Shown piece after piece: positions 3,837 through 20,616 of a stretch of 21,283 bases of DNA. The notes below the pieces were generated by a model. It did no database searches, was not told the DNA's origin, and saw nothing but the letters and a program-made list of their open reading frames with translations. The DNA lies in IMG/VR virus record IMGVR_UViG_3300043395_003232, positions 1-21,283 of that record, one strand, 5' to 3'. The translations under genes were made by a program, and so were the position numbers. Positions within the stretch are counted from its first letter, which is position 1. Each line of letters begins with the position of its first letter. Source of the DNA: a virus.

Positions 3837-6800
3837 ATGGCTAACAGATACTGGCGTGGAGGATCCGGTTCGTGGAACGCAACGAACACGACCAACTGGT
3901 CAGCCACGCCCGGCGGTGCAGGCGGAGCGTCTGTTCCAACGTCTGCTGATTCTGTTTTCTTTGATCGGACTGGAACCTATACTGTCGAGCTGAATGGCAT
4001 TGGTGGAAATATCCCAACTTGTCTGGATTTGACGGTCTCTGCCGGGAACGTGACCTTTACAGACGCTGTTGGCCCAGCAGCAATATATATCTATGGGTCA
4101 TTTACGCTCAGCAGCGCCACTAGTTGGAACTCCACCGCCAACCTAGTGTTTCAGTCCAATGGAACCAGTAAAACGATAACAACGAACGGTAAAACGCTGG
4201 GCAACACCAGCATCACGCTCAACGGCTCTGGCGGCGATGTATGGACGCTTGGGTCGGCGTTTAGTACAGGATACACAAGTTCGTTTACGCTTAGTGCTGG
4301 CACGCTGAATACGGCGGGCTATTCCTTCTACGCCAACACCTTTAATACAAACAATCAAAACGTTCGATCGTTGGTGCTCGGCGCATCGGCGTTCTTGACC
4401 ACCGTATGGTCAATCACCGATGCTACCAATCTTACATTTAATGCTGGCACATCAACAATCACACATACCGCACAGTCAACCAACTTCGACGGAGCCGGAC
4501 TGACGTATTACAACGTTAGCATCGTTCCGACGGTTAACGTGTTTTCAGCGACCGTTACCGGAGCAAATACATTCAATAACCTCTCGTTTGGGCCAGCACT
4601 ATTTGCAAGCTCAAATCCTTACCGAATTGGATTCTCTGATAATCAGGTAATTACGGGCACTCTTGATTTTGGCACGAGCGGTGACGTAACTCTTAGGCGC
4701 ACCGTTTCTTGGTCTGGGACTGACGGCACTACGCAAATAACGTTAACAGCAGGCGCAATCACAGGTACTAATATCGACCTGCGGAATATTGTAATTGCAG
4801 GCGCGGCAGCTCCATTCAACGCCTCTTCCTTGGGGTGGGGGGATTGCGGCAACAACTCCGGGGTTACATTTCCTTCTCCCAAGACGGTGTACTGGAATCT
4901 TGCCGGAATCAAAAACTGGTATGACGTGGGTTGGGCCACCTCTTCAGGCGGCACTCCCGCAGCGGGAAATTTCCCACTTCCGCAAGACACGGCGGTTTTC
5001 GATGACACCGGGAGTGTCACCGGAACGATTACTCTTACCGGGTACAACGTTGGCAACTTGAATATGTCAGCGCGAACGAGCGCTATGACGCTGGCGGTTA
5101 CTTCGACAGCTCTTCAATGTGGGGACATGACGCTGGGGTCGGGTGTAACAATCACGGGCGCACTTTACTATTACGGAAAATCAGGAGTCGCAACGACAAT
5201 AACGCGCAATAGCGCAACAATTAACTCGACGCTTAACATCAACAACAGCCCGATCATTTCACTCGGGGATAATTTCGTGGTTAACGCGGCTGTAACGTTC
5301 AATTCAGGAACGCTGAGCCTTGGAACCTACAATTTTTCTTGCACTACTTTTACGTCTGGCACCTCCACGCCTCGTACGCTTGCATTTGGTACTGGGGCTA
5401 TCAATTGCACGGGAACTGGCACCGTTTGGAATGCTTCATCAGTCACCAATCTTACGGTATCGGGTACTCCAGTAGTCAACGTAACAAGTGTTGGATCAAC
5501 TGGAATTACGATTAGTTCCGGCGGCGCAGAGAACCAAGCCATCAGTTTTAATTTTACTGGCGGGACTTACGCGCTTACGATTTCTGCGGCTGTGTTCAAA
5601 GACCTGAATTTTTCAGGGTATTCAGGTGTATTGGTCGCCTTGACAAGTAACGCTACTATTTACGGAAATCTTACGCTGTCGTCCAGCATGACGATAACAG
5701 CCGCCTCATTTGGTTTCACCTTCTCCGGGTCCAGCGGCAATAAAACAGTAACAACCAACGGGATCACCGTACAGATTCCTTTCACGTTCAGCGGTGCAGG
5801 CTCCACATGGAAGCCAGTTGGCGCTCTGACACTTGGAACGAGCAAGACACTGGCTGTCAGCGCCGGCACGTTTGATTTCGACGGATATACGATCTCGTCA
5901 GGCGCTTTTACTATTAGCGCTGGCGCAACGGTAGCTTTTGGGTCTATTGGTTTATATATAACTGGTTCCGGTGCTGTTTTCTCGCAGAGCTCCACTGCGA
6001 CAGTGACTGGCTTGCGTAATGTGTATTTGACGTATTCCGGCGCAACGGCTACATCAGTTTCTGCGGTCTCGGTTACTGAGGCAAACGCAGTCAACTATTT
6101 CATAACTGCCGGGACCTACAGTTTTTCCATCGCTTCCTTGAGTGGGGTTAGGAACTTAGACTTCTACAACTCGGGGGCATCAACATTCACTGGTGTCTGG
6201 GCCAACGGAAGCGTTTCGGCAACAATCTACGGCAGCTTGACTCTTAAGTCAGGTATGACTTCCACTGGCACGGGAACGTTTTCGTTTAGCGCGACTAGTG
6301 GCGTAAAAACAATCACAAGCGCCGGGGTCACGCATAGCGCTCAGTTCGCGTTTAACGGGGCTGGCGGAACTTGGCAACTTCAGGATGCCCTCTCCACGAC
6401 AAGCTCAAGCACCAGCGCAATAAACCTTACGACAGGCACGTTCGATGCCAATGGTTACAACGTAACCGTAACGGGTAGTGTGAACATATCAAACGCCAAC
6501 ATCCGGACGCTTGCAATTGGTTCTGGAACCTGGACTGTTGGTGGAGCCTGGACAGCCTCGACGGTAACCAATTTGACGGTTACAGGAACTGGTGTAATCA
6601 GCTTGAACAGCGCATCGGCAAAGAGCTTTAATGGCGCTACTTTTTCGTACACCAATATAACGTTAAATCAGGGTGGGGCGGGGACGCTGTCGATAATTGG
6701 CGCCAATACCTTCAAGGACATCACCAACAGCTATGCCGCCACTGGCGCCACGACCATCCTGCTGGGCGCAACGCAAACCGTTTCGCAATTTACAGGGGCC

Positions 6801-7988
6801 GGTGCGTCAGGCAAAGTGCTGACGTTGAACAGCTCGCTTGCCGGAACGCAGAGAACGCTTACCCTTTCGGGCGGCGGTACGGTTTCAACCGACTATCTGA
6901 ACGTAAAAGACATTGCATTCACTCCCGGACCTGCCGCCAACGGAACAACTCCGTATGTCTGGTATCTGGGGGCAAACTCCATTAACAGCGGCAACAACAT
7001 CGGCGGGCTGTTTCAAGCCGGCGGAGCAGGTGCTCTCAAGGTCTATCAGATCACCGATACTGCGGCGACATCATGGACTGTTCCTTCCGACTGGAACTCC
7101 AGTAGCAACACTGTTCATTTAATTGGTGGCGGCGGTGGAGGTGGCGGCGCTCGTGGCACATCCAGCTCGATCAGGGCGGCTGGTGGCGGTGGCGGTGGTG
7201 CCGGCTATCGAGTTGTAACCAATTACTCCTCCTCCCCAGGAGCCACGATTACTGTTGCAGTTGGTGCAGGCGGCACCGCCGGAACCACTTTAGGCGGGAC
7301 GGGCGGCACAGGCGGTACAACGTCCTGGGCGTCGAGCTCTGCTACTGGAGGTTCTGGAGGCTCTACAACCGCAACACCATCTTCTGCTGGCGGCGCGGGT
7401 GGTACTGGCACTTATACCGGCGGCACGGGCGGTCCGGGCGGTTTTACAACTGCATCGTCAACATATGCTGCTGGTGGCGGTGGTGGCGGATCTGCTGGAC
7501 CCAACGGAAACGGCGGAAACGGCGGCGGCGGTAACATTACAGGAACTATCGGTAGCACTGCCGGTGGCGGTGGTGGTGGTAACGGCGGCGGTACTGCTGG
7601 TGCAACTGGTGTTTCTGGGACCGGTGGTGCTGGCGGAAACAACTCCTCTGGTACTGGTGGCGGCGCATCCAACACCGCAGGCACGTTTGGCGGTGGCGGT
7701 GGCGGTGGCCTTAACGCCGCCGGTAAGACAGGTGGCATGGGCCTGGAAATTCTGGGCACTGTCGGTTCTGGAGGGGGCTCTGGCGGATCTGCTGGATCGG
7801 TCGTGGCGGGTACGGCTGGCGTCAACTATGGTGCCGGCGGAGGTGGTGGATCTCCCAGCAGTTCTACTACAACAGCCGCTGGCGGCGCGGGCGGTCAAGG
7901 CTTAATCGTGATCGCGTATGTTCCGTATAACGCTCCGCCTGCACCGGCCAATCAATCCAACTTTATGGCGTTACTTGATGCGGCATGA
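3837..7988 (+). CDS. Large beta-rich adhesin/fibre with polyglycine C-terminal domain
   Basis: This 1383-residue protein is a probable surface adhesin of the tail. It opens with MANRYWRGGSGSWNATNTTNW and a VPTSADSVFFD motif. A diverged second copy appears near residues 345-395 (VYWNLAGIKNWYDVGW, then PLPQDTAVFDD). The middle is Thr/Ser/Asn/Gly-rich beta strands with three diverged repeat units, recognised by SKTITTNGKT (residue ~109), GNKTVTTNGIT (~633) and GVKTITSAGVT (~821), each followed by an NGSGG/SGAGSTW/NGAGGTW turn. This suggests a beta-helix or beta-solenoid. From about residue 1070 comes a glycine-rich domain: SWTVPSDW, HLIGGGGGGGG, many GG(T/A/S)GG repeats and the closing GLIVIAYVP. 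Similar domains occur in phage fibre-tip adhesins. GC in sampled lines is 43-48% against about 60% in other genes, suggesting separate acquisition. GGAG at 3826-3829 serves the ATG. Confidence 0.85.
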   Translation: MANRYWRGGSGSWNATNTTNWSATPGGAGGASVPTSADSVFFDRTGTYTVELNGIGGNIPTCLDLTVSAGNVTFTDAVGPAAIYIYGSFTLSSATSWNSTANLVFQSNGTSKTITTNGKTLGNTSITLNGSGGDVWTLGSAFSTGYTSSFTLSAGTLNTAGYSFYANTFNTNNQNVRSLVLGASAFLTTVWSITDATNLTFNAGTSTITHTAQSTNFDGAGLTYYNVSIVPTVNVFSATVTGANTFNNLSFGPALFASSNPYRIGFSDNQVITGTLDFGTSGDVTLRRTVSWSGTDGTTQITLTAGAITGTNIDLRNIVIAGAAAPFNASSLGWGDCGNNSGVTFPSPKTVYWNLAGIKNWYDVGWATSSGGTPAAGNFPLPQDTAVFDDTGSVTGTITLTGYNVGNLNMSARTSAMTLAVTSTALQCGDMTLGSGVTITGALYYYGKSGVATTITRNSATINSTLNINNSPIISLGDNFVVNAAVTFNSGTLSLGTYNFSCTTFTSGTSTPRTLAFGTGAINCTGTGTVWNASSVTNLTVSGTPVVNVTSVGSTGITISSGGAENQAISFNFTGGTYALTISAAVFKDLNFSGYSGVLVALTSNATIYGNLTLSSSMTITAASFGFTFSGSSGNKTVTTNGITVQIPFTFSGAGSTWKPVGALTLGTSKTLAVSAGTFDFDGYTISSGAFTISAGATVAFGSIGLYITGSGAVFSQSSTATVTGLRNVYLTYSGATATSVSAVSVTEANAVNYFITAGTYSFSIASLSGVRNLDFYNSGASTFTGVWANGSVSATIYGSLTLKSGMTSTGTGTFSFSATSGVKTITSAGVTHSAQFAFNGAGGTWQLQDALSTTSSSTSAINLTTGTFDANGYNVTVTGSVNISNANIRTLAIGSGTWTVGGAWTASTVTNLTVTGTGVISLNSASAKSFNGATFSYTNITLNQGGAGTLSIIGANTFKDITNSYAATGATTILLGATQTVSQFTGAGASGKVLTLNSSLAGTQRTLTLSGGGTVSTDYLNVKDIAFTPGPAANGTTPYVWYLGANSINSGNNIGGLFQAGGAGALKVYQITDTAATSWTVPSDWNSSSNTVHLIGGGGGGGGARGTSSSIRAAGGGGGGAGYRVVTNYSSSPGATITVAVGAGGTAGTTLGGTGGTGGTTSWASSSATGGSGGSTTATPSSAGGAGGTGTYTGGTGGPGGFTTASSTYAAGGGGGGSAGPNGNGGNGGGGNITGTIGSTAGGGGGGNGGGTAGATGVSGTGGAGGNNSSGTGGGASNTAGTFGGGGGGGLNAAGKTGGMGLEILGTVGSGGGSGGSAGSVVAGTAGVNYGAGGGGGSPSSSTTTAAGGAGGQGLIVIAYVPYNAPPAPANQSNFMALLDAA
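7119..7905 (+). repeat. Glycine-rich domain coding repeat (GGN GGN tracts)
   Basis: This stretch codes for polyglycine tracts of five to eight Gly separated by short loops (TAGTTLGGTGG, SAGPNGNGGNGGG, TFGGGGGGG). Such tracts resemble those that form polyglycine type II helices in the adhesin gp38 of T-even-like phages, where the loops between helices bind the receptor. That comparison is by pattern only. GGC and GGT codons are mixed. The antisense Pro-rich and alternate-frame open stretches are shadows. Confidence 0.7.
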
Positions 7989-11399: not shown

Positions 11400-13022
11400 A
11401 TGACAGCAATCAGCGTCAAGCAATTCGGAGGCATCAAGCCGATCATCAGCGCCCGACTGCTCGGCGCTAACGAGGCCCAGACCGCGCTCAACGCGAAGCT
11501 GGTCTCTGGCTCTCTGTTGCCGATGAAGGGCACCACGACGCTGCAAGCGCTGCAAAGCTCCAATCCGGCGACGATCTACCGTTACGGCACCAGCTCAACG
11601 GAAGCCAACTACTGGCTCGAGTTCGCGCAAGACACCGACGTCATGCGCACCCCGATTGCCCAGGACCAGTACGATCGTCTGTACTGGACTGACGGCAATA
11701 ACGTCCCTCGTTATGCCCCCAACAGCATGATCCTGGCCGCTGGTTCAGGAGCGTATCCGAGGGGGTCTTACAAGCTCGGCATTCCGGCGCCATCATCCGC
11801 CCCGGTATTGTCCGGAACCACGGCGGCTGGAACTGCTGACAAGCCAGAGACCCGAACCTACGTCACGACCTACGTGTCGGCGTACGGAGAAGAAGGGCCT
11901 CCGTCACCCGCGGCGGACCTGGTCACCATTAAGCCTGACACTGCCGTGACTGTCAGCCTTCCAGGCAATCCGTCTGGCGCTTACAACATCACGCTGGTCC
12001 GCATCTACCGGTCATCCACGGTTGGCAGCGCGGCACAGTTCCAGTTCGTGACAGAGGTCCCTGTCGCAAACACCTCGTATACCGACAGCAAAAAGCAGGC
12101 TGATCTGGCCGAGGTTTTGCCGTCTACCAATTGGGTCGCCCCTCCGGCTGGGCTCAAGGGTCTGCGCATGATGGCCAACGGCGCAGCAGTCGGCTTTGTA
12201 GGGAAAACCCTATATTTCTCGGAGCCGTACCTGCCGCATGCCTGGCCGAATGAGTACCCGATCGACTACGAAATCGTCGGCATCGCCACCTACGGTCAGT
12301 ACGTGGCGGTCTTGACTACGTCATACCCGTACCTGTTCAGCGGCGTTGACCCTGCCGCCATGAGCTCGAGCAAGATGCCTTTGCCGCAGGCTTGCGTCTC
12401 CAAGCGTTCGATTGTGGAGACCGGCAACGGTGTGATCTACGCCTCTCCTGATGGCCTGGTGGAGATCGGTACAACCAACGACGTTGTGACTCGCGGCATC
12501 TTTAATCGTGAGCAATGGCAGGATTACGTACCGTCCTCGATCGACGCCTACACCTACAACGGGCGGATCCACTGCTTCTACAACAACGGGACCCGCGGCG
12601 TTCTGGTGTTCGACTTCATGGGTCAGGGCGCCGTCCTAACCACGAACGACATCAACACCAGCACAGCGGTGACCGCAGCCTTCTACGACGCCACGGTGGA
12701 CAAGCTGTACCTGGCTCAGGGCGGCAACATCGTTCGTTTCGACCAGGGCTCCAACCAAACCTTCACCTGGAAAAGCAAACAGTTCCGGATGGACTACCCG
12801 CACAACTTCGGGTTTGGTCAAGTCAACGCGTATCAGTACCCGGTGACTTTCAAGCTGTACGCAGACGGCGTATTGAAGATGACGAAAACGGTCCAGAACA
12901 ACAACCAATTCCGATTGCCGTCGGGCTTCCGTGCTTACGAGTGGGCGTTTCAGCTCGAGGGCACTGGCGAGGTTACCGAGGTGGCGATCTCTGACAGCAC
13001 CGCAGAATTGAAATCTGTATGA
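11400..13022 (+). CDS. Virion structural protein, probable tail hub/beta-propeller type
   Basis: This 540-residue protein belongs to a family I recognise as a phage virion protein. It opens with MTAISVKQFGGIKPIISARLL and AQTALNAKL, followed by TIYRYG, WLEFAQDTDVMRTPIAQDQYDRLYWTDG and YKLGIPAPSSAP. The middle contains an FN3-like segment (TYVTTYVSAYGEEGPPSPA, then VRIYRSS). The second half has blade-like repeats (GKTLYFSEPYLPHAWP, VAVLTTSYPYLFSGVDP, GNGVIYASPDGLVEIG, DKLYLAQGGNIVRFDQG), which suggest a beta-propeller. Such proteins occur in podoviruses near tail and ejection genes; P22 gp10-like tail-plug proteins are a possible analogue, not shown here. GAGGG at 11391-11395 lies 4 bases before ATG. 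The stop overlaps the next ATG (13019-13022). Confidence 0.8.
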   Translation: MTAISVKQFGGIKPIISARLLGANEAQTALNAKLVSGSLLPMKGTTTLQALQSSNPATIYRYGTSSTEANYWLEFAQDTDVMRTPIAQDQYDRLYWTDGNNVPRYAPNSMILAAGSGAYPRGSYKLGIPAPSSAPVLSGTTAAGTADKPETRTYVTTYVSAYGEEGPPSPAADLVTIKPDTAVTVSLPGNPSGAYNITLVRIYRSSTVGSAAQFQFVTEVPVANTSYTDSKKQADLAEVLPSTNWVAPPAGLKGLRMMANGAAVGFVGKTLYFSEPYLPHAWPNEYPIDYEIVGIATYGQYVAVLTTSYPYLFSGVDPAAMSSSKMPLPQACVSKRSIVETGNGVIYASPDGLVEIGTTNDVVTRGIFNREQWQDYVPSSIDAYTYNGRIHCFYNNGTRGVLVFDFMGQGAVLTTNDINTSTAVTAAFYDATVDKLYLAQGGNIVRFDQGSNQTFTWKSKQFRMDYPHNFGFGQVNAYQYPVTFKLYADGVLKMTKTVQNNNQFRLPSGFRAYEWAFQLEGTGEVTEVAISDSTAELKSV

Positions 13023-16000
13023 CCAGAGAAACTCAGGTTGCATCGATCCCAGATGTTCGTGACGACAACGTCACGGATGTGCTGCGCGCCATTAAGAACG
13101 TCCTCCAGGTACGCGAAGGCTTGCTTGGCGACGCGCTCGATCAGTATGTGACCTGGCGAGACCTGACCGATGTTAACTTGGTCGCCTCCGGCGGAACATC
13201 GACGCTCACCAACGGAACCAGGGTTCCGGTTGCGAACCCTAATACAGGGGGTGATGGATACGATCCAACGACGGACCTCACAACTCCGTCTCAGCCATCC
13301 GGCTTGACGGCCTCCGCCACCTTCTCGAACGTCTACCTTTCCTGGAGTGGAGCCGCTTACCGCAACCACGCCTACACCGAGATCTGGCGCTCCAGCACCA
13401 ACGTACTTGGCAACGCGGTGTTGATCGGAACATCGATCTCCAACGTCTACGCAGATGCCGCCCAAGAAGGACAAACGTACTACTACTGGATTCGGTTCGT
13501 CTCTCAGGCTGACGTCAAAGGTCCTTATAACGCAACATCGGGAACGGCAGCGACCACAGCCACGAGCCCCGCCACGCTGCTCACCTTGCTGACCGGGCAG
13601 ATCACACAGAGCCAGCTCTACTCAACGCTCAGCAGCCGTATCGACCTGATCGACGCTGCGTCTTCTGTTTCCGGTTCTGTGAATGCCAGGATTGCTGTGG
13701 TGCAGAGCCAGGTCAACGACCTTCTTAACACGCCGTCGTACAGCAACTCGACGGCGTATGCCGCCGGCGCCGTCGTAACGTACAACGGTAGCCTTTACCA
13801 GGCGCTGCAAGCGACAACTGGCAACCTTCCGACCAATGCTACGTATTGGAAGAAGATCGGGGAATACGCGTCGCTTGGTGATGCTGTGGCGGCACACACC
13901 ACACAGATCAGCAATCTTCAGTCCGGACTTGACCAGGAGGTCACGGACCGCACACTGCTTGCGTCTCAGATGCGAGGGAGCTACTCCGGCAGTGACATTG
14001 CCCAGGTGACGTCCGGCCTGCTCTATGAAGAGCGCACGGCACGGTCAACCGCAGACACCGCCCTCTCGAGCTCGATCTCGTCGCTGTCGTCCACGGTCAC
14101 CAACAACTACAACACGCTCAACTCCGCGATCACGTCGGAGCAAACGACTCGCAGCACGGCAGACTCGGCTCTGGCGTCAAGCATCTACTCGCTACAGTCC
14201 ACGGCGTCCGGAATGGAGGTTACCAAGTCCTGGAACTTCGACGCCAACACCGAGGGCTTTGCGGTCAACAACGCGTCGATTTCATGGTCGGCCGGATCGT
14301 TGCGGATCAATTCGTCCAACAACGATCCTATTCTTTACACACCGTCCATCAGCCTGGACGGAAGCAAGGGCTATCTCATCCGCGCTCGGATCAAGCGCCT
14401 TGCCGGTTCCGCATGGGACGGGAAGATTTACTACACCACCGCGAGCCATGGAGATTCTGAGACGTACCGGGTGCAGATTGCGGATGGGACGGCGACCAAT
14501 GAGTGGCGCATCCTCGAGTGGGATATGTCGTCCCTCTCGGACTGGACGTCAAGCACGATCCTGGGCATTCGGATAGACCTGGGCGCGAGCTCGTCTGACC
14601 AGTTCCTGATCGACTGGATCTCTGTGTCTCGGGTTGCGCCGATGCCTTTGGCGAGCCAGGCCACGCTGCAAACCGATTACTACACCAAGACCGCCACCGA
14701 CAGCGCGATTGCATCGGCAACGACGAACCTGGTCTCAACGACAACTCTCAATAGCACCCTGTCGTCGTACGTCACGACGGCAGCGCTCACCAACAGCTAT
14801 TACACCAAGACCGCCACCGACAGCGCAATCAGCTCAGCCAACAGCACCCTGAGCGCATCGATTGCAAGTACGTACCCAACGTCGGTGTCGGTGTCGCAGA
14901 ACTACTACGCCAAAGCCTCCGGCCAGGCGCTCGAGTCTCAGTACACCGTCAAGATCGACAACAACGGATACGTCAGCGGATTTGGTCTTGCCTCCACTCT
15001 ATCGAATGGCGCTCCGTCTAGCAGCTTCATGGTGCGGGCTGACACTTTCTCGGTTGTCAATCCGTCTGTTTATCGAGTAAGTGTTTACTCGATTGGTATT
15101 AGTTTTAGCGGCAACATCATTTACACGAACTCCGCCCACGGTTTTTCTGTGGGCGACAAGGTCTCGTTCCAAAATGTTTCCGGGTACACCGAGATCTACA
15201 CAGTTATTGCGGTGAATAGCGGTACCGAGTTCAAGATTGACAGGTTCTCGTACTCGAATGTGACTACAGCCTCGTCGTACGTCGCGAAGGTTGCTGTGCC
15301 TTTCATTGTTGACAGCGGTAATGTCTATATTGACACCGCGATCATCAAGGATGCGTCGATCACGACCGCCAAGATCAGCAGCTTGACGGCGGATAAGGTG
15401 ACGACCGGCAACCTGACGGCAATTGTCAACAACACCGGCACTATGTACGGAGGTGTTGCTGCATACACGATCGATGGCAGCGGGAACTATGTCTCGACCG
15501 GTTATACACCTGGCGGATCGTCATTCGGCACTGGCTACCTTCTTGGGGCGTACGGCGGCGCGACGCAGTTCTTCATTGGTTCGCCAACTCAGAACCTGCT
15601 GTGGAACGGAACCAGTCTTAGCGTCAAAGGCTCGATCTCAGCGTCCAGCATCAGTGGATCAACGATCTCCGGCGGAACCATTTCTGGAACCACAATCAAC
15701 GGCACCACAATCACTGGCGGCACGATCAATGGTTCCGATGTTGTCATTGGCAGCAGTCCAGCAATCTCTACGGTCAACAACACCATAATGACCGGAAGCG
15801 GAATCCGGCTGTACTCGGACGGGACCGCGGCATTTGGAAACTCTACCACCTCAATGGTATGGAACGGTTCTGGTCTGTACCTGAGCGGCTTGAGCAATGG
15901 ATCGACCGTCAACATCCCGGGTTCCGCAGCCGGGCTTCTCGGCTTGTCTGGGTACAACAACATCCTGGACTTTACGATTGAACGAGGATCAAAGGTGCTT

Positions 16001-16357
16001 TTGGGCGTCGCCTATGCAGCAGGCTATTACGCGTTAATTATCGGCGGGCAGGTGCCAAACTACCACTCGGAAATTCAAATTAGTTGGGAACTTTTCAAAG
16101 ACGGTGTTACCACTGGATCTATCTGGAACATGAGCCAGACTGTTGTGTCTTGGACGTATTTCGGCAATTCGTACGGCTGGACGGTTGAGCTCACTCTTGC
16201 TCCTGGAACTTACCATTTGAAAGTGCGGGCTCCAACCGGCAAAGGAAGATTGTGGAATGGCAGTTCGTACGTTCGAGATACCACTGTGGGCTCGCCCTAC
16301 TATGACGCGTACAACCTTTACGCCATGCAGGCGTTTGTTTACCAAGTGTTGCTCTGA
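13019..16357 (+). CDS. Lambda gpJ C-terminal-like tail fibre/host specificity protein
   Basis: This 1112-residue protein likely carries receptor binding. Residues 1-85 form an N-terminal virion-binding part. An FN3 domain spans about 90-182 (SQPSGLTASATFSNVYLSW, YTEIWRSS, YYYWIRFVS). A gpJ-like segment follows (LLTLLTGQITQSQLYSTLSSRIDLID). A chitin-binding-like module lies at about 238-283 (NSTAYAAGAVVTYNGSLYQAL, YWKKIG). Helical repeats come next, then a jelly-roll, carbohydrate-binding-like domain at about 404-535 (WNFDANTEGF, YLIRARIKR, IDWISVSR). After two YYTKTATDSAI repeats comes the gpJ core (PFIVDSGNVYIDTAIIKDASI), with an inserted beta-domain at about 682-760. The C-terminus has pentapeptide-like repeats and a beta-sandwich tip. 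The large gpJ N-terminal hub is absent. No clear Shine-Dalgarno; translation is probably coupled by ATGA. Confidence 0.88.
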   Translation: MTRETQVASIPDVRDDNVTDVLRAIKNVLQVREGLLGDALDQYVTWRDLTDVNLVASGGTSTLTNGTRVPVANPNTGGDGYDPTTDLTTPSQPSGLTASATFSNVYLSWSGAAYRNHAYTEIWRSSTNVLGNAVLIGTSISNVYADAAQEGQTYYYWIRFVSQADVKGPYNATSGTAATTATSPATLLTLLTGQITQSQLYSTLSSRIDLIDAASSVSGSVNARIAVVQSQVNDLLNTPSYSNSTAYAAGAVVTYNGSLYQALQATTGNLPTNATYWKKIGEYASLGDAVAAHTTQISNLQSGLDQEVTDRTLLASQMRGSYSGSDIAQVTSGLLYEERTARSTADTALSSSISSLSSTVTNNYNTLNSAITSEQTTRSTADSALASSIYSLQSTASGMEVTKSWNFDANTEGFAVNNASISWSAGSLRINSSNNDPILYTPSISLDGSKGYLIRARIKRLAGSAWDGKIYYTTASHGDSETYRVQIADGTATNEWRILEWDMSSLSDWTSSTILGIRIDLGASSSDQFLIDWISVSRVAPMPLASQATLQTDYYTKTATDSAIASATTNLVSTTTLNSTLSSYVTTAALTNSYYTKTATDSAISSANSTLSASIASTYPTSVSVSQNYYAKASGQALESQYTVKIDNNGYVSGFGLASTLSNGAPSSSFMVRADTFSVVNPSVYRVSVYSIGISFSGNIIYTNSAHGFSVGDKVSFQNVSGYTEIYTVIAVNSGTEFKIDRFSYSNVTTASSYVAKVAVPFIVDSGNVYIDTAIIKDASITTAKISSLTADKVTTGNLTAIVNNTGTMYGGVAAYTIDGSGNYVSTGYTPGGSSFGTGYLLGAYGGATQFFIGSPTQNLLWNGTSLSVKGSISASSISGSTISGGTISGTTINGTTITGGTINGSDVVIGSSPAISTVNNTIMTGSGIRLYSDGTAAFGNSTTSMVWNGSGLYLSGLSNGSTVNIPGSAAGLLGLSGYNNILDFTIERGSKVLLGVAYAAGYYALIIGGQVPNYHSEIQISWELFKDGVTTGSIWNMSQTVVSWTYFGNSYGWTVELTLAPGTYHLKVRAPTGKGRLWNGSSYVRDTTVGSPYYDAYNLYAMQAFVYQVLL
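14681..14826 (+). repeat. 26-base exact direct repeat, spaced 120 bases, in the gpJ-like fibre
   Basis: The 26 bases at 14681-14706 recur exactly at 14801-14826; both code for YYTKTATDSA. The 120-base offset equals 40 codons, so the protein unit is 40 residues. A degenerate third start (NYYAKASG) lies near 14900. YYTK-type repeats are common in phage fibre shafts. Identity at DNA level suggests a recent duplication or conversion. Confidence 0.85.
15072..15093. repeat. Perfect 9-bp inverted repeat (hairpin) inside the fibre gene
   Basis: ATCGAGTAA (15072-15080) and TTACTCGAT (15085-15093) are perfect inverse complements around a 4-base GTGT loop. It lies where the inserted low-GC domain of the gpJ-like fibre begins. 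No T-tract follows, so it is not a terminator. It may be a recombination scar or chance. Confidence 0.7.
15133..15155. repeat. Perfect 7-bp inverted repeat inside the fibre gene
   Basis: CGCCCAC (15133-15139) pairs with GTGGGCG (15149-15155) around a 9-base T-rich loop. It is the second hairpin within 85 bases in the inserted low-GC domain and codes for SAHGFSVGD. No T-tract follows the stem. Confidence 0.6.
15644..15733 (+). repeat. Six pentapeptide-like repeats xxIxG
   Basis: In frame, six consecutive five-residue units read SSISG STISG GTISG TTING (first four) then TTITG GTING, residues 876-905. Ile and Gly recur every five residues, as in a narrow beta-helix of pentapeptide type. The segment lies between the conserved gpJ C-terminal core and the terminal receptor-binding tip. 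Confidence 0.8.
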
Positions 16358-16363
16358 CCGTAT

Positions 16364-16840
16364 ATGAAGCACTACATCGTTTATGACCCGGCTTCCGGTG
16401 AAATTAAATCATCAGGCAGCACCACCGAGGCAATGTTTTGCTCTGAAAGCGGGGACCCAAATCGAGTCATCATGGAGGGGGTTGCGAGCGGAGCAACTCA
16501 CTACGTTCTTGATGGAGTCATCACCCCGTATACCGAAGAGCAAGCGGCTTCCAAGAGCGCTCAACCCAGCCCTCACCATCGGTGGAGCAATGATACGTTC
16601 TCATGGGTTGACACTCTTCCTCCTGGAGCCAGGGAATACGTAGCAGCAGGGGCCGTCCGCACGCAGCGTGACCAGTTGCTTGCCCAATCGGATTGGACTG
16701 ACACCCTGTCTGCAAAGACTCGCATGGGTGACGCGCTCTACAACGCCTGGCAGGACTACCGCCAGATCCTGCGCGACGTCCCGCAGCAAGCCGGCTTCCC
16801 GACCAACGTAGCTTGGCCGGAACCTCCGAGCCCCACCTAA
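16364..16840 (+). CDS. Tail fibre assembly chaperone
   Basis: This 158-residue protein resembles phage tail assembly chaperones, which help fold or attach the fibre coded just upstream. The N-terminal half (MKHYIVYDPASGEIKSSGST, then GATHYVLDG and ITPYTEEQ) is a small beta domain. The C-terminal half is diagnostic: RTQRDQLLAQSDWTDT, then AWQDYRQILRDVP and QQAGFPTNVAWPEPP. This pattern is shared by T4 gp38-like and prophage fibre assembly proteins. The gene begins 6 bases after the gpJ-like fibre stop; the Shine-Dalgarno is not obvious, so expression may depend on coupling. Pairing with the upstream fibre is the usual arrangement. No signal peptide or membrane segment is present. Confidence 0.9.
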   Translation: MKHYIVYDPASGEIKSSGSTTEAMFCSESGDPNRVIMEGVASGATHYVLDGVITPYTEEQAASKSAQPSPHHRWSNDTFSWVDTLPPGAREYVAAGAVRTQRDQLLAQSDWTDTLSAKTRMGDALYNAWQDYRQILRDVPQQAGFPTNVAWPEPPSPT

Positions 16841-16859: not shown

Positions 16860-17768
16860 ATGCTCGAGCTTCAGGAACCCAATACCAAAGTACTCACCCA
16901 ACAAATCCCTGATGAGCGGGATGTGGTGATGCTCGCTCGCGAGTTTGCCTTGAGCAAATCCGTTGAGGAGGTGGAGGGCACGATGCTGGGTATGCCGCAA
17001 GCCGAGGCTCAGGTCATTCACCGCTTTGGCCCTGGCATCTACATCCGGGAAGTCATCATCCCAGCGGGCATTCTGGCCGTTGGTCACCGTCAGCGTTTCG
17101 AGCACATGAACGTGATGCTCAAGGGCCGGGTCACCGTCTTCAACGACAACGGCACGACGACCGAGCTGGTGGCGCCAATGGTCTTTGTAGGCAAGCCTGG
17201 TCGGAAGATCGGCTACGTCCACGAGGAAATGGTGTGGCAGAACATCTACGCCACGAACGAGACTGACATCGAGAAGCTCGAGGCGACCTACCTCGAGAAG
17301 AGCGATACCTGGAACCAGGACCAGAAAGAGCGAGCAGAAGCGTTGGCCTTGCGGTACGAGGCCGATCGCCAGGATTACCTGGCTTTGCTTGCAGAGGTGG
17401 GCATCCCCCACGAGATTGCCAGGGCGCAATCAGAGAACACCGATGACCAAATCCCGATGCCGCTGGGCAGCTACTCGATGATGGTTGCCGACTCTCCGAT
17501 CGAGGGCAAGGGCGTGTTTGCCACGGCCAACATTTCGGAAGGGGTGGTCATTGCTCCGGCTCGAATTGATGGCAAGCGCACACCCGCTGGCCGGTACACG
17601 AATCACTCAGTCGCGCCGAACGCGATCATGGTGAAGCGACCGAACGGCGACATCGACCTCGTAGCCACCCGCCAGATTGCTGGCTGTACCGGTGGCCAGC
17701 CTGGAGAGGAAATCACAATCGACTATCGGCAAGCCTTGCGGCTGTCTGGAATCGGGAGTTTGGAATGA
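16860..17768 (+). CDS. Cupin-SET domain fusion protein (putative lysine methyltransferase)
   Basis: This 302-residue protein joins two domains. Residues about 50-135 form a cupin-like beta-barrel (YIREVIIPAGILAVGHRQRFEH, NVMLKGRVTVFND, a proline/glycine turn GKPGRK, GYVHEE), with His76, Glu81/His82 and His121 as possible metal ligands. Residues about 137-190 are a charged helical linker. Residues about 203-293 look like a SET domain: SPIEGKGVFAT (GxG-type S-adenosylmethionine loop), GRYTNHSVAPNA (the NHSxxPN pseudoknot strand) and GEEITIDYR with Tyr289 as the likely catalytic tyrosine. The post-SET cysteines are absent. SET enzymes methylate lysine on proteins; the target here is unknown. Phages often carry such cupin and SET proteins separately in virion modules (from memory). 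CAGAGG at 16848-16853 precedes ATG; the stop overlaps the next ATG. Confidence 0.82.
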   Translation: MLELQEPNTKVLTQQIPDERDVVMLAREFALSKSVEEVEGTMLGMPQAEAQVIHRFGPGIYIREVIIPAGILAVGHRQRFEHMNVMLKGRVTVFNDNGTTTELVAPMVFVGKPGRKIGYVHEEMVWQNIYATNETDIEKLEATYLEKSDTWNQDQKERAEALALRYEADRQDYLALLAEVGIPHEIARAQSENTDDQIPMPLGSYSMMVADSPIEGKGVFATANISEGVVIAPARIDGKRTPAGRYTNHSVAPNAIMVKRPNGDIDLVATRQIAGCTGGQPGEEITIDYRQALRLSGIGSLE

Positions 17769-18997
17769 GTGGAATTGCAACCGCTATCATAGGGTCGGCA
17801 GCCGTCGGATATGCCGCCTCAAATCGAGCGTCTCAAAGAGCTGAAGATGCCGCCAACAATGCGACAGCCGCAGCAGCTCAGTCGGCGTCTGATCAGCTCA
17901 CGCTCGGCAGAGAGCAGCTAGAGTTCCAGAAGGACTACTACAACAACACGCTCAAGCCGATGCAAGAGCGTGACCTGAAGCTGCGCGAGGATCTTCAGGC
18001 CGAGCTCCTGCCGTCTATGCGTCAGCAGCGCGAGTTTGCCCAAGAGCAGAACGACTACTACAAGACGACGTTCAAGCCGATCGAAGAGCAGATGGCAAAG
18101 GATGCCACTGGCTACGATTCGCAGGAGAACATCGAGCGCCGCTCCGGGATTGCTGCGGCCAACGTCAACCAGGCTTACTCCAACGCTTCGGGTCAATCCG
18201 CTCGCGCTCTGTCGCGTATGGGTATTAACCCTAATAGCGGAGCCTTCGCCCGTGAGAACGCCAAGCTGTACAACAACGAGGCCCTGGCTTCTGCTGGAGC
18301 TCAGACCGGCGCAGCCTTCGACACGATGGACAAAGCGATTGCACTGCGTGCTGGCGCGGCGAACTTCGGTCGTAACATGCCTAACACTGCGGCGAACTAT
18401 TACGGCCTGGGCAACCAGACCGCAGGCGCCTCTTCTGGCGTCTCCAGTGCTGGCGTCAACAACGCCGTGAGCGCGATGAGCCCGACGCTCTCTGCTGGGC
18501 AAATCGCTGCTGGTGCCTTCCGTGGTGCGGGCTACGTGATGAACGACGCGTTCGCCAACAACATGCGGATGTACGGCATCCAACAGCAAGGCACGTCCGG
18601 CTTATTCAACGGCCTAGGCATGTTTGCCGCGACCAAGATGGGGCAAGACGCATTTGGCAAGCTCGGAAACAATATCAGCAGTTGGTGGAATGGCACCAGC
18701 GGAGTACAGGGTTTGGGAACCGTTAACCCGACATCTGGCGAATTCATGGGCTCGCTCGAGTTCGCTGATGGCGGTCATATCGATTCCAAGCGCATGGGCT
18801 TGGCTTACGCAAATGGCGGCAAGGTCCACGGACCTGGTGGCCCGGTTGATGACAAGGTCCCGGCTATGCTGAGTGACGGAGAATACGTCATTCCCGCTGA
18901 TGTCGTGAAAGCGAAGGGCGTTGAGTTCTTCGACAAGCTCAAAGACAAGTATCACACCCCGGCAGTCCTGCAACGCCGCGGTATTGGGAGAACGTAA
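17765..18997 (+). CDS. Internal virion (ejection) protein with SDGEYVIPADVV motif
   Basis: This 410-residue protein begins with a small hydrophobic segment (GIATAIIGSAAVGYAASNRAS), followed by Ala/Gln-rich helices and a long amphipathic helical region (LGREQLEFQKDYYNNTLKP, then a related FAQEQNDYYKTTFKPIEEQ). The centre is Ala/Gly/Asn-rich. The C-terminus (about residues 340-395) carries FADGGHIDSKRM, KVHGPGGPVDDKVP and LSDGEYVIPADVV, a motif set common in large phage virion proteins near ejection or tail-measure genes. In podoviruses such proteins are carried in the capsid and ejected with the DNA. GGGAG (17754-17758) lies 6 bases ahead of ATG. Stop and next start overlap as TAATG. The ejection role is inferred from composition and neighbours. 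Confidence 0.78.
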   Translation: MSGIATAIIGSAAVGYAASNRASQRAEDAANNATAAAAQSASDQLTLGREQLEFQKDYYNNTLKPMQERDLKLREDLQAELLPSMRQQREFAQEQNDYYKTTFKPIEEQMAKDATGYDSQENIERRSGIAAANVNQAYSNASGQSARALSRMGINPNSGAFARENAKLYNNEALASAGAQTGAAFDTMDKAIALRAGAANFGRNMPNTAANYYGLGNQTAGASSGVSSAGVNNAVSAMSPTLSAGQIAAGAFRGAGYVMNDAFANNMRMYGIQQQGTSGLFNGLGMFAATKMGQDAFGKLGNNISSWWNGTSGVQGLGTVNPTSGEFMGSLEFADGGHIDSKRMGLAYANGGKVHGPGGPVDDKVPAMLSDGEYVIPADVVKAKGVEFFDKLKDKYHTPAVLQRRGIGRT

Positions 18998-20616
18998 TGG
19001 CTGGTATTGGTGTACTTGGAGCTGCTGTCGGCTCGTTTGCCGAAGGCTACATGAAGGGCGAGAAGCATCGCTCCGAGATGGAAGATGCTGAGCTTCGCCG
19101 CGAGGCTGCGCGCCTTGGCATCCGCAAGGGCAAGCTGGAGGTTGACGAAGCCGAGAGCAAAGCCGCTGGCCGTCGCAAGATGGAAGAGATCGCGGCAAGG
19201 TACAGCCCGTACCTCAATGGCGATGGCGACGAGGCAACTGCTGCCGCCCCTGTAACCGCGATCGCGCCTCCTGGCGGCGGAGAAGCACCCGAGGCTCCCA
19301 TGCCTGCCGTTGCTCCTGCCCCTCGAGCTGGCGGCATCTCGGTCCCTGGTGCTGCTCCTGCTGTTCCTGCCGCTCCTGCTCAGCCGAAGATGTCTCGCCT
19401 GGACGCCATGCAGCGCATGTACAGCGAGATGAACGCTGCCGGACTGGCAAGCGGGAACGTCAGCGTCAAAGACGGACTTGATCTTTCGCTTGGCATGATG
19501 AAGCGCTTCCGCGACGCCAAGATGGACGACGCTCTCGCCATCATGCAGGACTTCGCAATCCACGGTGATCCTGCCCGTGCTTCGGCTGAGGCTCAGAGGG
19601 CTGGTCTACCCTTACCTCAAGGCGCCACCTGGTCCACCCAAGAGCGCGAAGTGTTCCCCGGCTCGAAGATGAAGACGAAGGACGTCGTCCTGTCCGGTAC
19701 TGATGGCGTGCCGATCTCGATGCTGGACATTATGTCCAAACGGATGGATCCCAAGGACTTCTTCTCGCGTGAGACGGAAGTCGCAAAAGCCGCCGGCGAC
19801 CTGGCATACAAGGCTGCTGTCCTGGAAGACCAGAAGTGGTATCACGGTGAGTTGCTCAAGCAGAACGCCAGCCAGCACCAGATCCAGCTCGAGCTCCTCA
19901 AGCGCCAGACCGCTGCTGCTGAGCGCCAAGCAGACATCGCCGGCAAGAAGTTCAACTTCGACGCGGTGCAGGCTCGCAACCTGAGCGCGCTGAACGAGGC
20001 CACTCGCCTGATCGGTGTACCAAGGGAGCTCACGCCTGAGCAGATGCGTGACTGGACGCCTGACCAGCAGTCTGCTTACGACCAGAAGCGCCAACAGTAC
20101 AACGCTCGCTTGGGCACGACGCTGTCGATCTACGCACTGAACAACGGTCGCGACACCGAGGGCAAAGAGCTGCTCCCGGTGGCGATAGCTGACCGCGCCA
20201 ACAACATCGTGGCCAAAGCCATCCAAGAGGGCAAGGTAGATAAGGTCGTGAAGACTGACGACATGGGCCACTCCTACGTGATGGTCGGTGAGCGCAAAGT
20301 TGAAGTGCTGCCCCCGAATCGTCCGCAAGCAGCAGACGCCGCTCCTCCAGCGGCTCCAGCGCCGGGTGCTGCGCCGGCTCCCCGCCAGGGCATCCAAACT
20401 CCCGGCGCCCCCGCTGCGCCCGCTACACCGCAGGCAATGGTTGAGGCCGAGACACGAGAGATCGAGATGGGTCGCCGTCGCGATTACTCGCCAGAAGCCA
20501 AGGCAATCATGCAGAAAATTCAAAGTGACAGAGCGGCTCAAGAGCAGGCCGCTCTTCAGGCGGAGCAACAACGGCAGATTGCTGCTTCGCGCGGTATCGC
20601 TGGGCAATATCGGTAA
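18997..20616 (+). CDS. Second internal virion protein, helical
   Basis: This 539-residue protein opens MAGIGVLGAAVGSFAEGYMKG, a weakly hydrophobic start, then a charged helix (KHRSEMEDAELRREAARLGI). A Pro/Ala-rich linker follows at about residues 80-125. The body is mainly helical (MQRMYSEMNAAGLASGNV, DLAYKAAVLEDQKWYHGEL, LLKRQTAAAERQADI), and a second Ala/Pro linker precedes a charged Gln-rich end. No catalytic motif is seen. Consecutive helical proteins of this kind between fibre genes and a very large virion protein recall the internal core proteins of podoviruses such as T7 gp14-gp16. GGGAG (18986-18990) lies 6 bases before ATG. It ends 69 bases before the next gene; that gap shows no convincing promoter or terminator. 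The role is inferred. Confidence 0.75.
   Translation: MAGIGVLGAAVGSFAEGYMKGEKHRSEMEDAELRREAARLGIRKGKLEVDEAESKAAGRRKMEEIAARYSPYLNGDGDEATAAAPVTAIAPPGGGEAPEAPMPAVAPAPRAGGISVPGAAPAVPAAPAQPKMSRLDAMQRMYSEMNAAGLASGNVSVKDGLDLSLGMMKRFRDAKMDDALAIMQDFAIHGDPARASAEAQRAGLPLPQGATWSTQEREVFPGSKMKTKDVVLSGTDGVPISMLDIMSKRMDPKDFFSRETEVAKAAGDLAYKAAVLEDQKWYHGELLKQNASQHQIQLELLKRQTAAAERQADIAGKKFNFDAVQARNLSALNEATRLIGVPRELTPEQMRDWTPDQQSAYDQKRQQYNARLGTTLSIYALNNGRDTEGKELLPVAIADRANNIVAKAIQEGKVDKVVKTDDMGHSYVMVGERKVEVLPPNRPQAADAAPPAAPAPGAAPAPRQGIQTPGAPAAPATPQAMVEAETREIEMGRRRDYSPEAKAIMQKIQSDRAAQEQAALQAEQQRQIAASRGIAGQYR

What the first reader, a model, noticed from the sequence alone, without database searches (positions are those of the whole stretch)
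16860..17768. Cupin-SET fusion protein inside a phage virion operon
One 302-residue protein couples a cupin-like barrel to a SET domain with IEGKGVFA, NHSVAPN and GEEITIDY, the three hallmarks of lysine methyltransferases. It sits between a fibre chaperone and ejection proteins, overlapping the first of these by 4 bases, so it is expressed with virion genes. A methyltransferase here could modify a virion protein (Lys-rich ejection proteins or fibres) or a host protein on entry. I recall the two domains more often as separate phage genes, so the fusion may show that they work together.
Basis: partly seen in the sequence, partly recalled or inferred. Interest (0 to 1): 0.62.

Follow-up and report, generated by a model that had tools for sequence, protein, structure and literature searches.

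The report
Phage cupin–methyltransferase paired with ejection protein
Many phages, mostly known from metagenomes, carry one protein that joins a barrel-shaped cupin domain to a methyl-transferring SET domain; it is always encoded directly before a protein injected into the host cell, and the start of that protein differs with the presence of the methyltransferase, which suggests, but does not prove, that the enzyme modifies it.

Summary
Window 16860-17768 (+) encodes a 302-aa protein with a cupin fold (about residues 47-135), a helical linker and a short SET domain (203-293) keeping GxG, NHSxxPN and GEEITIDY. Pfam SET scores 2.7e-7 and matches all 27 relatives scanned; AlphaFold pLDDT is 89.5. 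The fusion is a widespread unnamed family (phrog_34170, over 100 distinct copies) under purifying selection. Cupin-only homologues are common; no genome with cupin and SET as separate genes turned up.

The upstream gene varies, but the downstream gene is nearly constant: a P22 gp7/T7 gp14-type ejection protein, 25 nt overlap to 3 nt gap in all 132 loci. Its N-terminus tracks the SET domain: residue 3 is G/A/S in 106/108 cupin-SET phages, but W/V/F/Y/M/L in 69/73 cupin-only phages. The tree has only 3-5 SET gains or losses, so this is suggestive, not significant. In one clade the ejection protein has no lysine while the SET motifs are intact.

Best reading: an assembly partner that methylates its neighbouring ejection protein, most likely at the N-terminal amine. 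The partnership is well supported; methylation and site are inferred. Lysine methylation elsewhere is the main rival.

The parts
16860..17768 (+). cupin-SET fusion gene, 302 aa (phrog_34170 family)
   Evidence: over 100 distinct relatives
16998..17264 (+). cupin/RmlC-type beta barrel, residues about 47-135; cupin metal ligands not kept
   Evidence: AlphaFold strands 51-131; Foldseek to PDB cupins; phrog_12032/24280 match residues 31-162; ligand columns
17268..17459 (+). helical linker, residues about 137-200
   Evidence: AlphaFold helices 137-144, 149-165, 167-180, 184-191
17466..17738 (+). short SET domain, residues 203-293, about 33 residues shorter than bacterial SET domains in the SET-I region
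   Evidence: Pfam SET 2.3e-8 for the isolated domain; profile register against bacterial SETs
17505..17513 (+). GxG (residues 216-218), presumed S-adenosylmethionine loop
   Evidence: G216 76/77, G218 77/77
17601..17621 (+). NHSxxPN (residues 248-254)
   Evidence: N248 76/77, H249 75/77, N254 74/77
17703..17726 (+). GEEITIDY (residues 282-289) with presumed catalytic Tyr289
   Evidence: E284, T286, Y289 77/77
17765..18997 (+). partner gene: ejection protein (phrog_8003, virion structural), 410 aa, N-terminus MSGIATAIIGSA
   Evidence: downstream genes form one homology cluster in 125 of 133 loci; 132 loci with 25 nt overlap to 3 nt gap; MSG-type N-terminus
16364..16840 (+). tail fibre assembly chaperone (Phage_tail_APC), upstream neighbour, not conserved across the family
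   Evidence: Pfam PF16778 4.7e-21; upstream genes fall in 31 clusters
18997..20616 (+). second gene downstream, probable further ejection protein, 539 aa
   Evidence: position in the operon; no convincing family match

Best explanation
The protein is a dedicated assembly partner and modifying enzyme of the ejection protein encoded directly after it (P22 gp7/T7 gp14 type). The cupin barrel, which lacks cupin metal ligands, is probably a binding module. The SET domain, with intact SAM and catalytic motifs, transfers methyl groups to the bound ejection protein. The likeliest acceptor is the alpha-amine of the N-terminal Ser left after Met removal (S-G/A-V-A-T-A...), not a lysine: the small second residue would let the N-terminus enter the narrow channel that normally takes a lysine side chain. 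Well supported: fold, motif conservation, selection, constant pairing. Suggested by comparison: the N-terminal difference. Inferred: SAM binding, methylation, target, and the use (keeping the hydrophobic N-terminus controlled until packaging, or tuning its membrane insertion at entry).
For: SET motifs near-invariant, Pfam SET in 27/27, model, purifying selection. Downstream gene constant while upstream genes fall in 31 clusters. The first ten residues are the most conserved block of the ejection protein (mean share 0.78 against 0.20-0.58) with no lysine column over 0.48. Residue 3 is G/A/S in 106/108 SET+ and W/V/F/Y/M/L in 69/73 SET- phages, in all gene-overlap classes, and in the close pair L185 (SET+, MSAV) and L187 (SET-, MSVV). 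Lysine-free ejection proteins (L066, L070, L073, L074) beside an intact cupin-SET. The siphophage-like L080 pairs cupin-SET with a J-like tail protein that also has a hydrophobic MS- N-terminus. In phages without the cupin, the slot before the ejection gene can hold an acetyltransferase-like gene (PfAn1, Pam1), another amine-modifying fold.
Against: Only 3-5 gains or losses of SET on the cupin tree; the 2-3 independent pairs on supported branches all agree, but the sign test cannot reach 0.05. The SET segment lies next to the ejection gene start, so recombination could move both together without function. L078/L079 (SET+) have MSVV; L181, L382 and BPP-1 (SET-) have a small residue 3 (L386 too, unless its upstream start MSWMT is used). 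Phages with the cupin alone lack the reaction, so it is not universally needed. No test of SAM binding, activity, virion location or complex formation. SET enzymes mostly methylate lysine.
Confidence: 0.42

Rival explanations
1. The SET domain is an ordinary protein-lysine methyltransferase whose target is a lysine on another protein: a later ejection protein, a tail or capsid protein, or a host protein. The pairing with the ejection gene reflects only the cupin's role or operon history.
For: SET enzymes mostly methylate lysine (general knowledge); motifs intact. Other virion proteins of the window contain lysines: 539-aa protein 31, fibre 23. Cupin-only phages pair with the ejection gene too, so the cupin alone may account for the pairing.
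Against: No other neighbour was found conserved with the fusion. The ejection-protein N-terminus differs with SET presence, which this reading does not predict. No conserved lysine column in the neighbour.
Confidence: 0.3
2. The SET domain no longer catalyses; the whole protein is structural, for example a tail or neck component or an assembly scaffold, as the PHROG names 'short tail fiber protein' and 'tail fiber adhesin' for cupin-only relatives suggest.
For: Cupin-only homologues carry those names; the SET domain lacks the SET-I region; the cupin has lost metal ligands; some lineages have only the cupin.
Against: Near-invariant SAM and catalytic residues over 77 sequences down to about 28% identity and dN/dS 0.02-0.16 in the SET domain. 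The fibre names appear transferred, not tested.
Confidence: 0.2
3. The link between SET and the ejection-protein N-terminus is hitchhiking: the SET segment and the adjacent gene start move as one recombination block, without an enzyme-substrate relation. (This rival concerns the N-terminal evidence only and can be true together with the others.)
For: The two segments are contiguous or overlap; few transitions; in L185/L187 the first 30 residues of the ejection protein differ more than most of the rest.
Against: The small-residue signature persists over deep divergence (L002 and L188 far from the window) and in non-overlapping gene pairs; cupin-only phages keep a large residue 3 although the rest of the protein diverges widely.
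Confidence: 0.3

Closest known systems
phrog_34170 (PHROGs v4, 'unknown function')
   Same: Full-length match, residues 32-298, E 3.3e-92: the same family, already clustered.
   Different: It has no name or function; no held paper found that describes a phage cupin-SET protein.
PBCV-1 vSET (1n3j) and MLL1-type SET lysine methyltransferases
   Same: SET signature motifs; profile hits to MLL1 (3.9e-6) and vSET (3.5e-4); Foldseek MLL1.
   Different: About 33 residues missing in the SET-I region relative to bacterial SETs, fused to a cupin, encoded in a phage virion operon.
Cupin-only phage proteins phrog_12032 'short tail fiber protein' / phrog_24280 'tail fiber adhesin' (Vibrio phages, Thalassomonas BA3, Bordetella BPP-1 Bbp23)
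   Same: Homologous barrel, usually the same slot before the ejection gene.
   Different: No SET domain; the next gene mostly begins MSW or MSV rather than MSG or MSA.
T7 gp13 (PF11090, probable scaffold) and phage acetyltransferases phrog_1249 (PfAn1, Pam1)
   Same: Occupy the same slot directly before the gp14/gp7-type ejection gene.
   Different: Different fold; acetyltransferase-like for PfAn1 and Pam1, only a weak hint for T7 gp13. Analogy of position, not homology.
TM1459-type small cupins
   Same: Fold.
   Different: Metal-ligand positions not kept: Q78 and M/V/T124 in place of His (register by eye).

Membership tests
SET-domain methyltransferase | SET profile match | tested here: met
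   Pfam PF00856 2.7e-7, over cut-off 22.4 bits; 27/27 relatives
SET-domain methyltransferase | SAM motifs GxG and NHSxxPN | tested here: met
   G218 77/77, N248 76/77, H249 75/77
SET-domain methyltransferase | catalytic tyrosine in the C-terminal motif | tested here: met
   Y289 77/77
SET-domain methyltransferase | SET fold with pseudoknot | tested here: inconclusive
   Model confident and matches MLL1 SET, TMt up to 0.53; the knot was not inspected in coordinates
SET-domain methyltransferase | SET-I substrate region (variable in length across the family) | tested here: not met
   About 33 residues absent relative to bacterial SETs; not a strict requirement for SET membership
SET-domain methyltransferase | SAM binding and methyl transfer to lysine | not testable with these tools
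   No biochemistry available
Cupin superfamily | conserved small beta barrel | tested here: met
   Foldseek cupins, 2fqp TMt 0.66
Cupin superfamily | metal-binding His/Glu set (present in cupin enzymes, not in all cupins) | tested here: not met
   H76 and H82 common, the others replaced; not conserved in cupin-only relatives
Short tail fibre protein / adhesin (phrog_12032, phrog_24280) | sequence similarity of the N-terminal half | tested here: met
   3.7e-32 and 1.1e-26
Short tail fibre protein / adhesin (phrog_12032, phrog_24280) | tail location and receptor binding | not testable with these tools
   Annotation only; no virion data read
P22 gp7/T7 gp14-type ejection protein (the partner gene) | family match and position before further ejection genes | tested here: met
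   phrog_598 'DNA ejection' for relatives; the window copy matches phrog_8003 'virion structural protein'; operon order

The most novel reading that the evidence does not exclude
A phage-encoded SET enzyme, held on a cupin adaptor, that methylates the N-terminal alpha-amine of the pore-forming ejection protein encoded next to it; one of several exchangeable N-terminus-handling modules (cupin, cupin-SET, acetyltransferase-like) that sit before the first ejection gene of short-tailed phages.
Probability: 0.25. Interest if true: 0.82.

Novelty: new variant of a known kind. Interest (0 to 1): 0.6.

Why it matters
Ejection proteins go from a compact store in the capsid to a channel across the host envelope, and I know of no account of how their hydrophobic starts are kept in check before that. 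A widespread dedicated partner, sometimes carrying a methyltransferase, gives a specific gene pair on which to ask whether phages chemically modify their ejection proteins. It would also give a role to a family now labelled unknown function or tail fibre, and possibly show a SET enzyme acting on an N-terminus in a bacterial virus.

Tried and rejected
Conserved C-terminal Cys motif (LCHG, LCQQ): it is the start codon ATG of the next gene read in the overlapping frame. Cupin as a metal enzyme: ligand positions not kept. Lysine target in the neighbouring ejection protein: no conserved lysine, zero lysines in one clade. The idea that the hydrophobic N-terminus travels with cupin-SET into a siphophage J-like protein (L080): a J homologue without a cupin neighbour (EBPR siphovirus 1 gp67) also has a hydrophobic N-terminus, so the segment belongs to the J protein. 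Overlap coding constraint as cause of residue 3: the same split is seen in non-overlapping pairs. T7 gp13 as a relative of the PfAn1 and Pam1 acetyltransferases: no significant BLASTP match. Folding cupin-SET together with its partner as one read-through chain was considered and not run, since no coordinates are returned. Literature hits for 'SET domain' in phage tail papers were Ig C2-set and I-set domains. A scan with the Vibrio 234P9 cupin found no relatives.

Full report
WHAT IS THERE. Window 16860-17768 (+) is one open frame of 302 aa. Pfam finds SET at residues 243-289 (2.7e-7, above the curated cut-off); PHROG phrog_34170 ('unknown function') covers residues 32-298 at 3.3e-92; the N-terminal half alone matches phrog_12032 and phrog_24280, named short tail fiber protein and tail fiber adhesin. 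AlphaFold2 on 27 relatives gives pLDDT 89.5 and pTM 0.84: a beta barrel (51-131), four helices (137-191), then a short SET-like domain (203-293). Foldseek against the PDB returns cupins (2fqp TMt 0.66, TM1459) and MLL1 SET structures; a profile search gives MLL1 at 3.9e-6 and the PBCV-1 vSET at 3.5e-4. So both domains are real. The window is itself an IMG/VR virus record of 21,283 bases.

HOW COMMON AND HOW CONSTRAINED. A first IMG/VR scan confirmed 136 relatives; the 80 kept cover cupin and SET. Later scans brought the set to 110 distinct fusions and 36 distinct cupin-only genes with a readable downstream gene, and more cupin-only genes after that. Fusions also occur in contigs of bacterial and metagenome assemblies. 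Over 77 distinct fusions, G218, E284, T286 and Y289 are invariant, N248 and H249 nearly so; all 27 of the alignment match Pfam SET. dN/dS of the SET domain is 0.02-0.16 in the pairs where it could be computed. The phage SET lacks about 33 residues, before NHS, that bacterial SETs have (the SET-I region). Cupin metal ligands are not kept (register against TM1459 by eye). I infer an active SAM enzyme with a non-metal cupin, but neither SAM binding nor catalysis was tested.

FUSED OR SEPARATE. The phage collection has 64 records matching the protein, most with the cupin alone. The SET half matches only 14 records, 8 of them fusions; the others (Pelagibacter phage Kolga, cyanophages, a marine virus) match over the SET only. 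No genome with cupin and SET as separate genes was found. A tree of the cupin domain needs 3-5 changes between fused and unfused. L185 (fused) and L187 (cupin only) have cupins 89% identical in DNA, with the SET cleanly present or absent.

NEIGHBOURS. Upstream genes fall in 31 clusters, downstream genes in 6, with 125 of 133 in one. The downstream gene starts between 25 nt before and 3 nt after the cupin(-SET) stop in all 132 loci. It matches phrog_598 'DNA ejection' in relatives, the P22 gp7 type (a relative in a phage without the cupin matches Pfam P22_gp7); T7 gp14 holds the same position. A review describes T7 gp14 as the first protein ejected, forming an outer-membrane pore (PMC8954989). 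In the window it is 410 aa, phrog_8003. Where the cupin is missing, the slot can hold an acetyltransferase-like gene: PfAn1 and Pam1 (phrog_1249); T7 has gp13 there (PF11090), whose likeness to acetyltransferases I recall but could only weakly see.

THE N-TERMINUS OF THE PARTNER. The first ten residues are the best-conserved block of the ejection protein. In cupin-SET phages it mostly reads MS[G/A/S][V/I]ATA; in cupin-only phages MSW, MSV, MSF, MSY, MTW. Residue 3 is G/A/S in 106 of 108 against 4 of 73 (Fisher p 2e-42, which ignores relatedness). It holds with no gene overlap (35/37 against 1/7), short overlap and long overlap. After thinning, 64/65 against 4/40. With relatedness counted, only 2-3 independent pairs exist on supported branches, all in the same direction, p 0.25-0.5. 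This is a lead, not a proof. T7 gp14 begins MCWAAAI.

LYSINE. In the L066 clade (four distinct sequences, 251-259 aa) the ejection protein has no lysine at all; four more SET+ copies have one. L066's own SET motifs are intact. If the neighbour is the substrate there, the N-terminal amine is its only primary amine. By general knowledge Met before Ser is removed, leaving Ser. Methylation of an N-terminal alpha-amine is known for the Rubisco small subunit, with the enzyme unassigned in PMC3991674; I recall an attribution to the SET enzyme LSMT but did not verify it. The idea that small residues let the N-terminus enter the lysine channel is my inference.

VERDICT. The fusion and its motifs are as described. 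The best-supported new fact is the partnership with the following ejection gene. Modification of that protein is the role I commit to (0.42), with the N-terminus the favoured site. Rivals are lysine methylation of another protein, a non-catalytic structural role, and linkage without function. No held paper describes the family, but the library is partial.

Noticed in passing
window 17765-18997: The window's ejection protein is 410 aa, longer than most relatives (about 200-280), with a C-terminal GGKVHGPGGPVDDKVPAMLSDGEYVIPADVV stretch that matches tape-measure families at about 1e-8.
   Followed up: partly
L194 2423-2887, L195 2624-3043, L197 2471-2878, L355 2508-2924: In phages without the cupin the slot before the ejection gene holds acetyltransferase-like genes (PfAn1, Pam1, weakly PAE2) or T7 gp13; an exchangeable position that may deserve its own study.
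   Followed up: partly
L080 3122-7929: A cupin-SET gene next to a 1292-aa J-like tail protein in a siphophage-like contig, outside the usual short-tailed setting.
   Followed up: partly
L004 7857-8372, L008 5953-6447, L189 8905-9363 (phrog_12032/24280 members): Cupin-only proteins are named short tail fiber protein or adhesin across databases; fold and gene position give no support for that name.
   Followed up: partly
L185 2239-3102 and L187 829-1383: Closely related cupin genes with and without the SET domain, a natural comparison pair.
   Followed up: yes
window 3837-7988: 1383-aa repetitive protein with a very glycine-rich C-terminal part, probable fibre (phrog_863, 8.9e-9).
   Followed up: no
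window 13019-16357: 1112-aa Phage_Tail_Tip protein containing a CBM_5_12 carbohydrate-binding module (2.4e-6).
   Followed up: no
L191 5980-6288: Free-standing 102-aa SET gene in Pelagibacter phage Kolga (phrog_28741).
   Followed up: no
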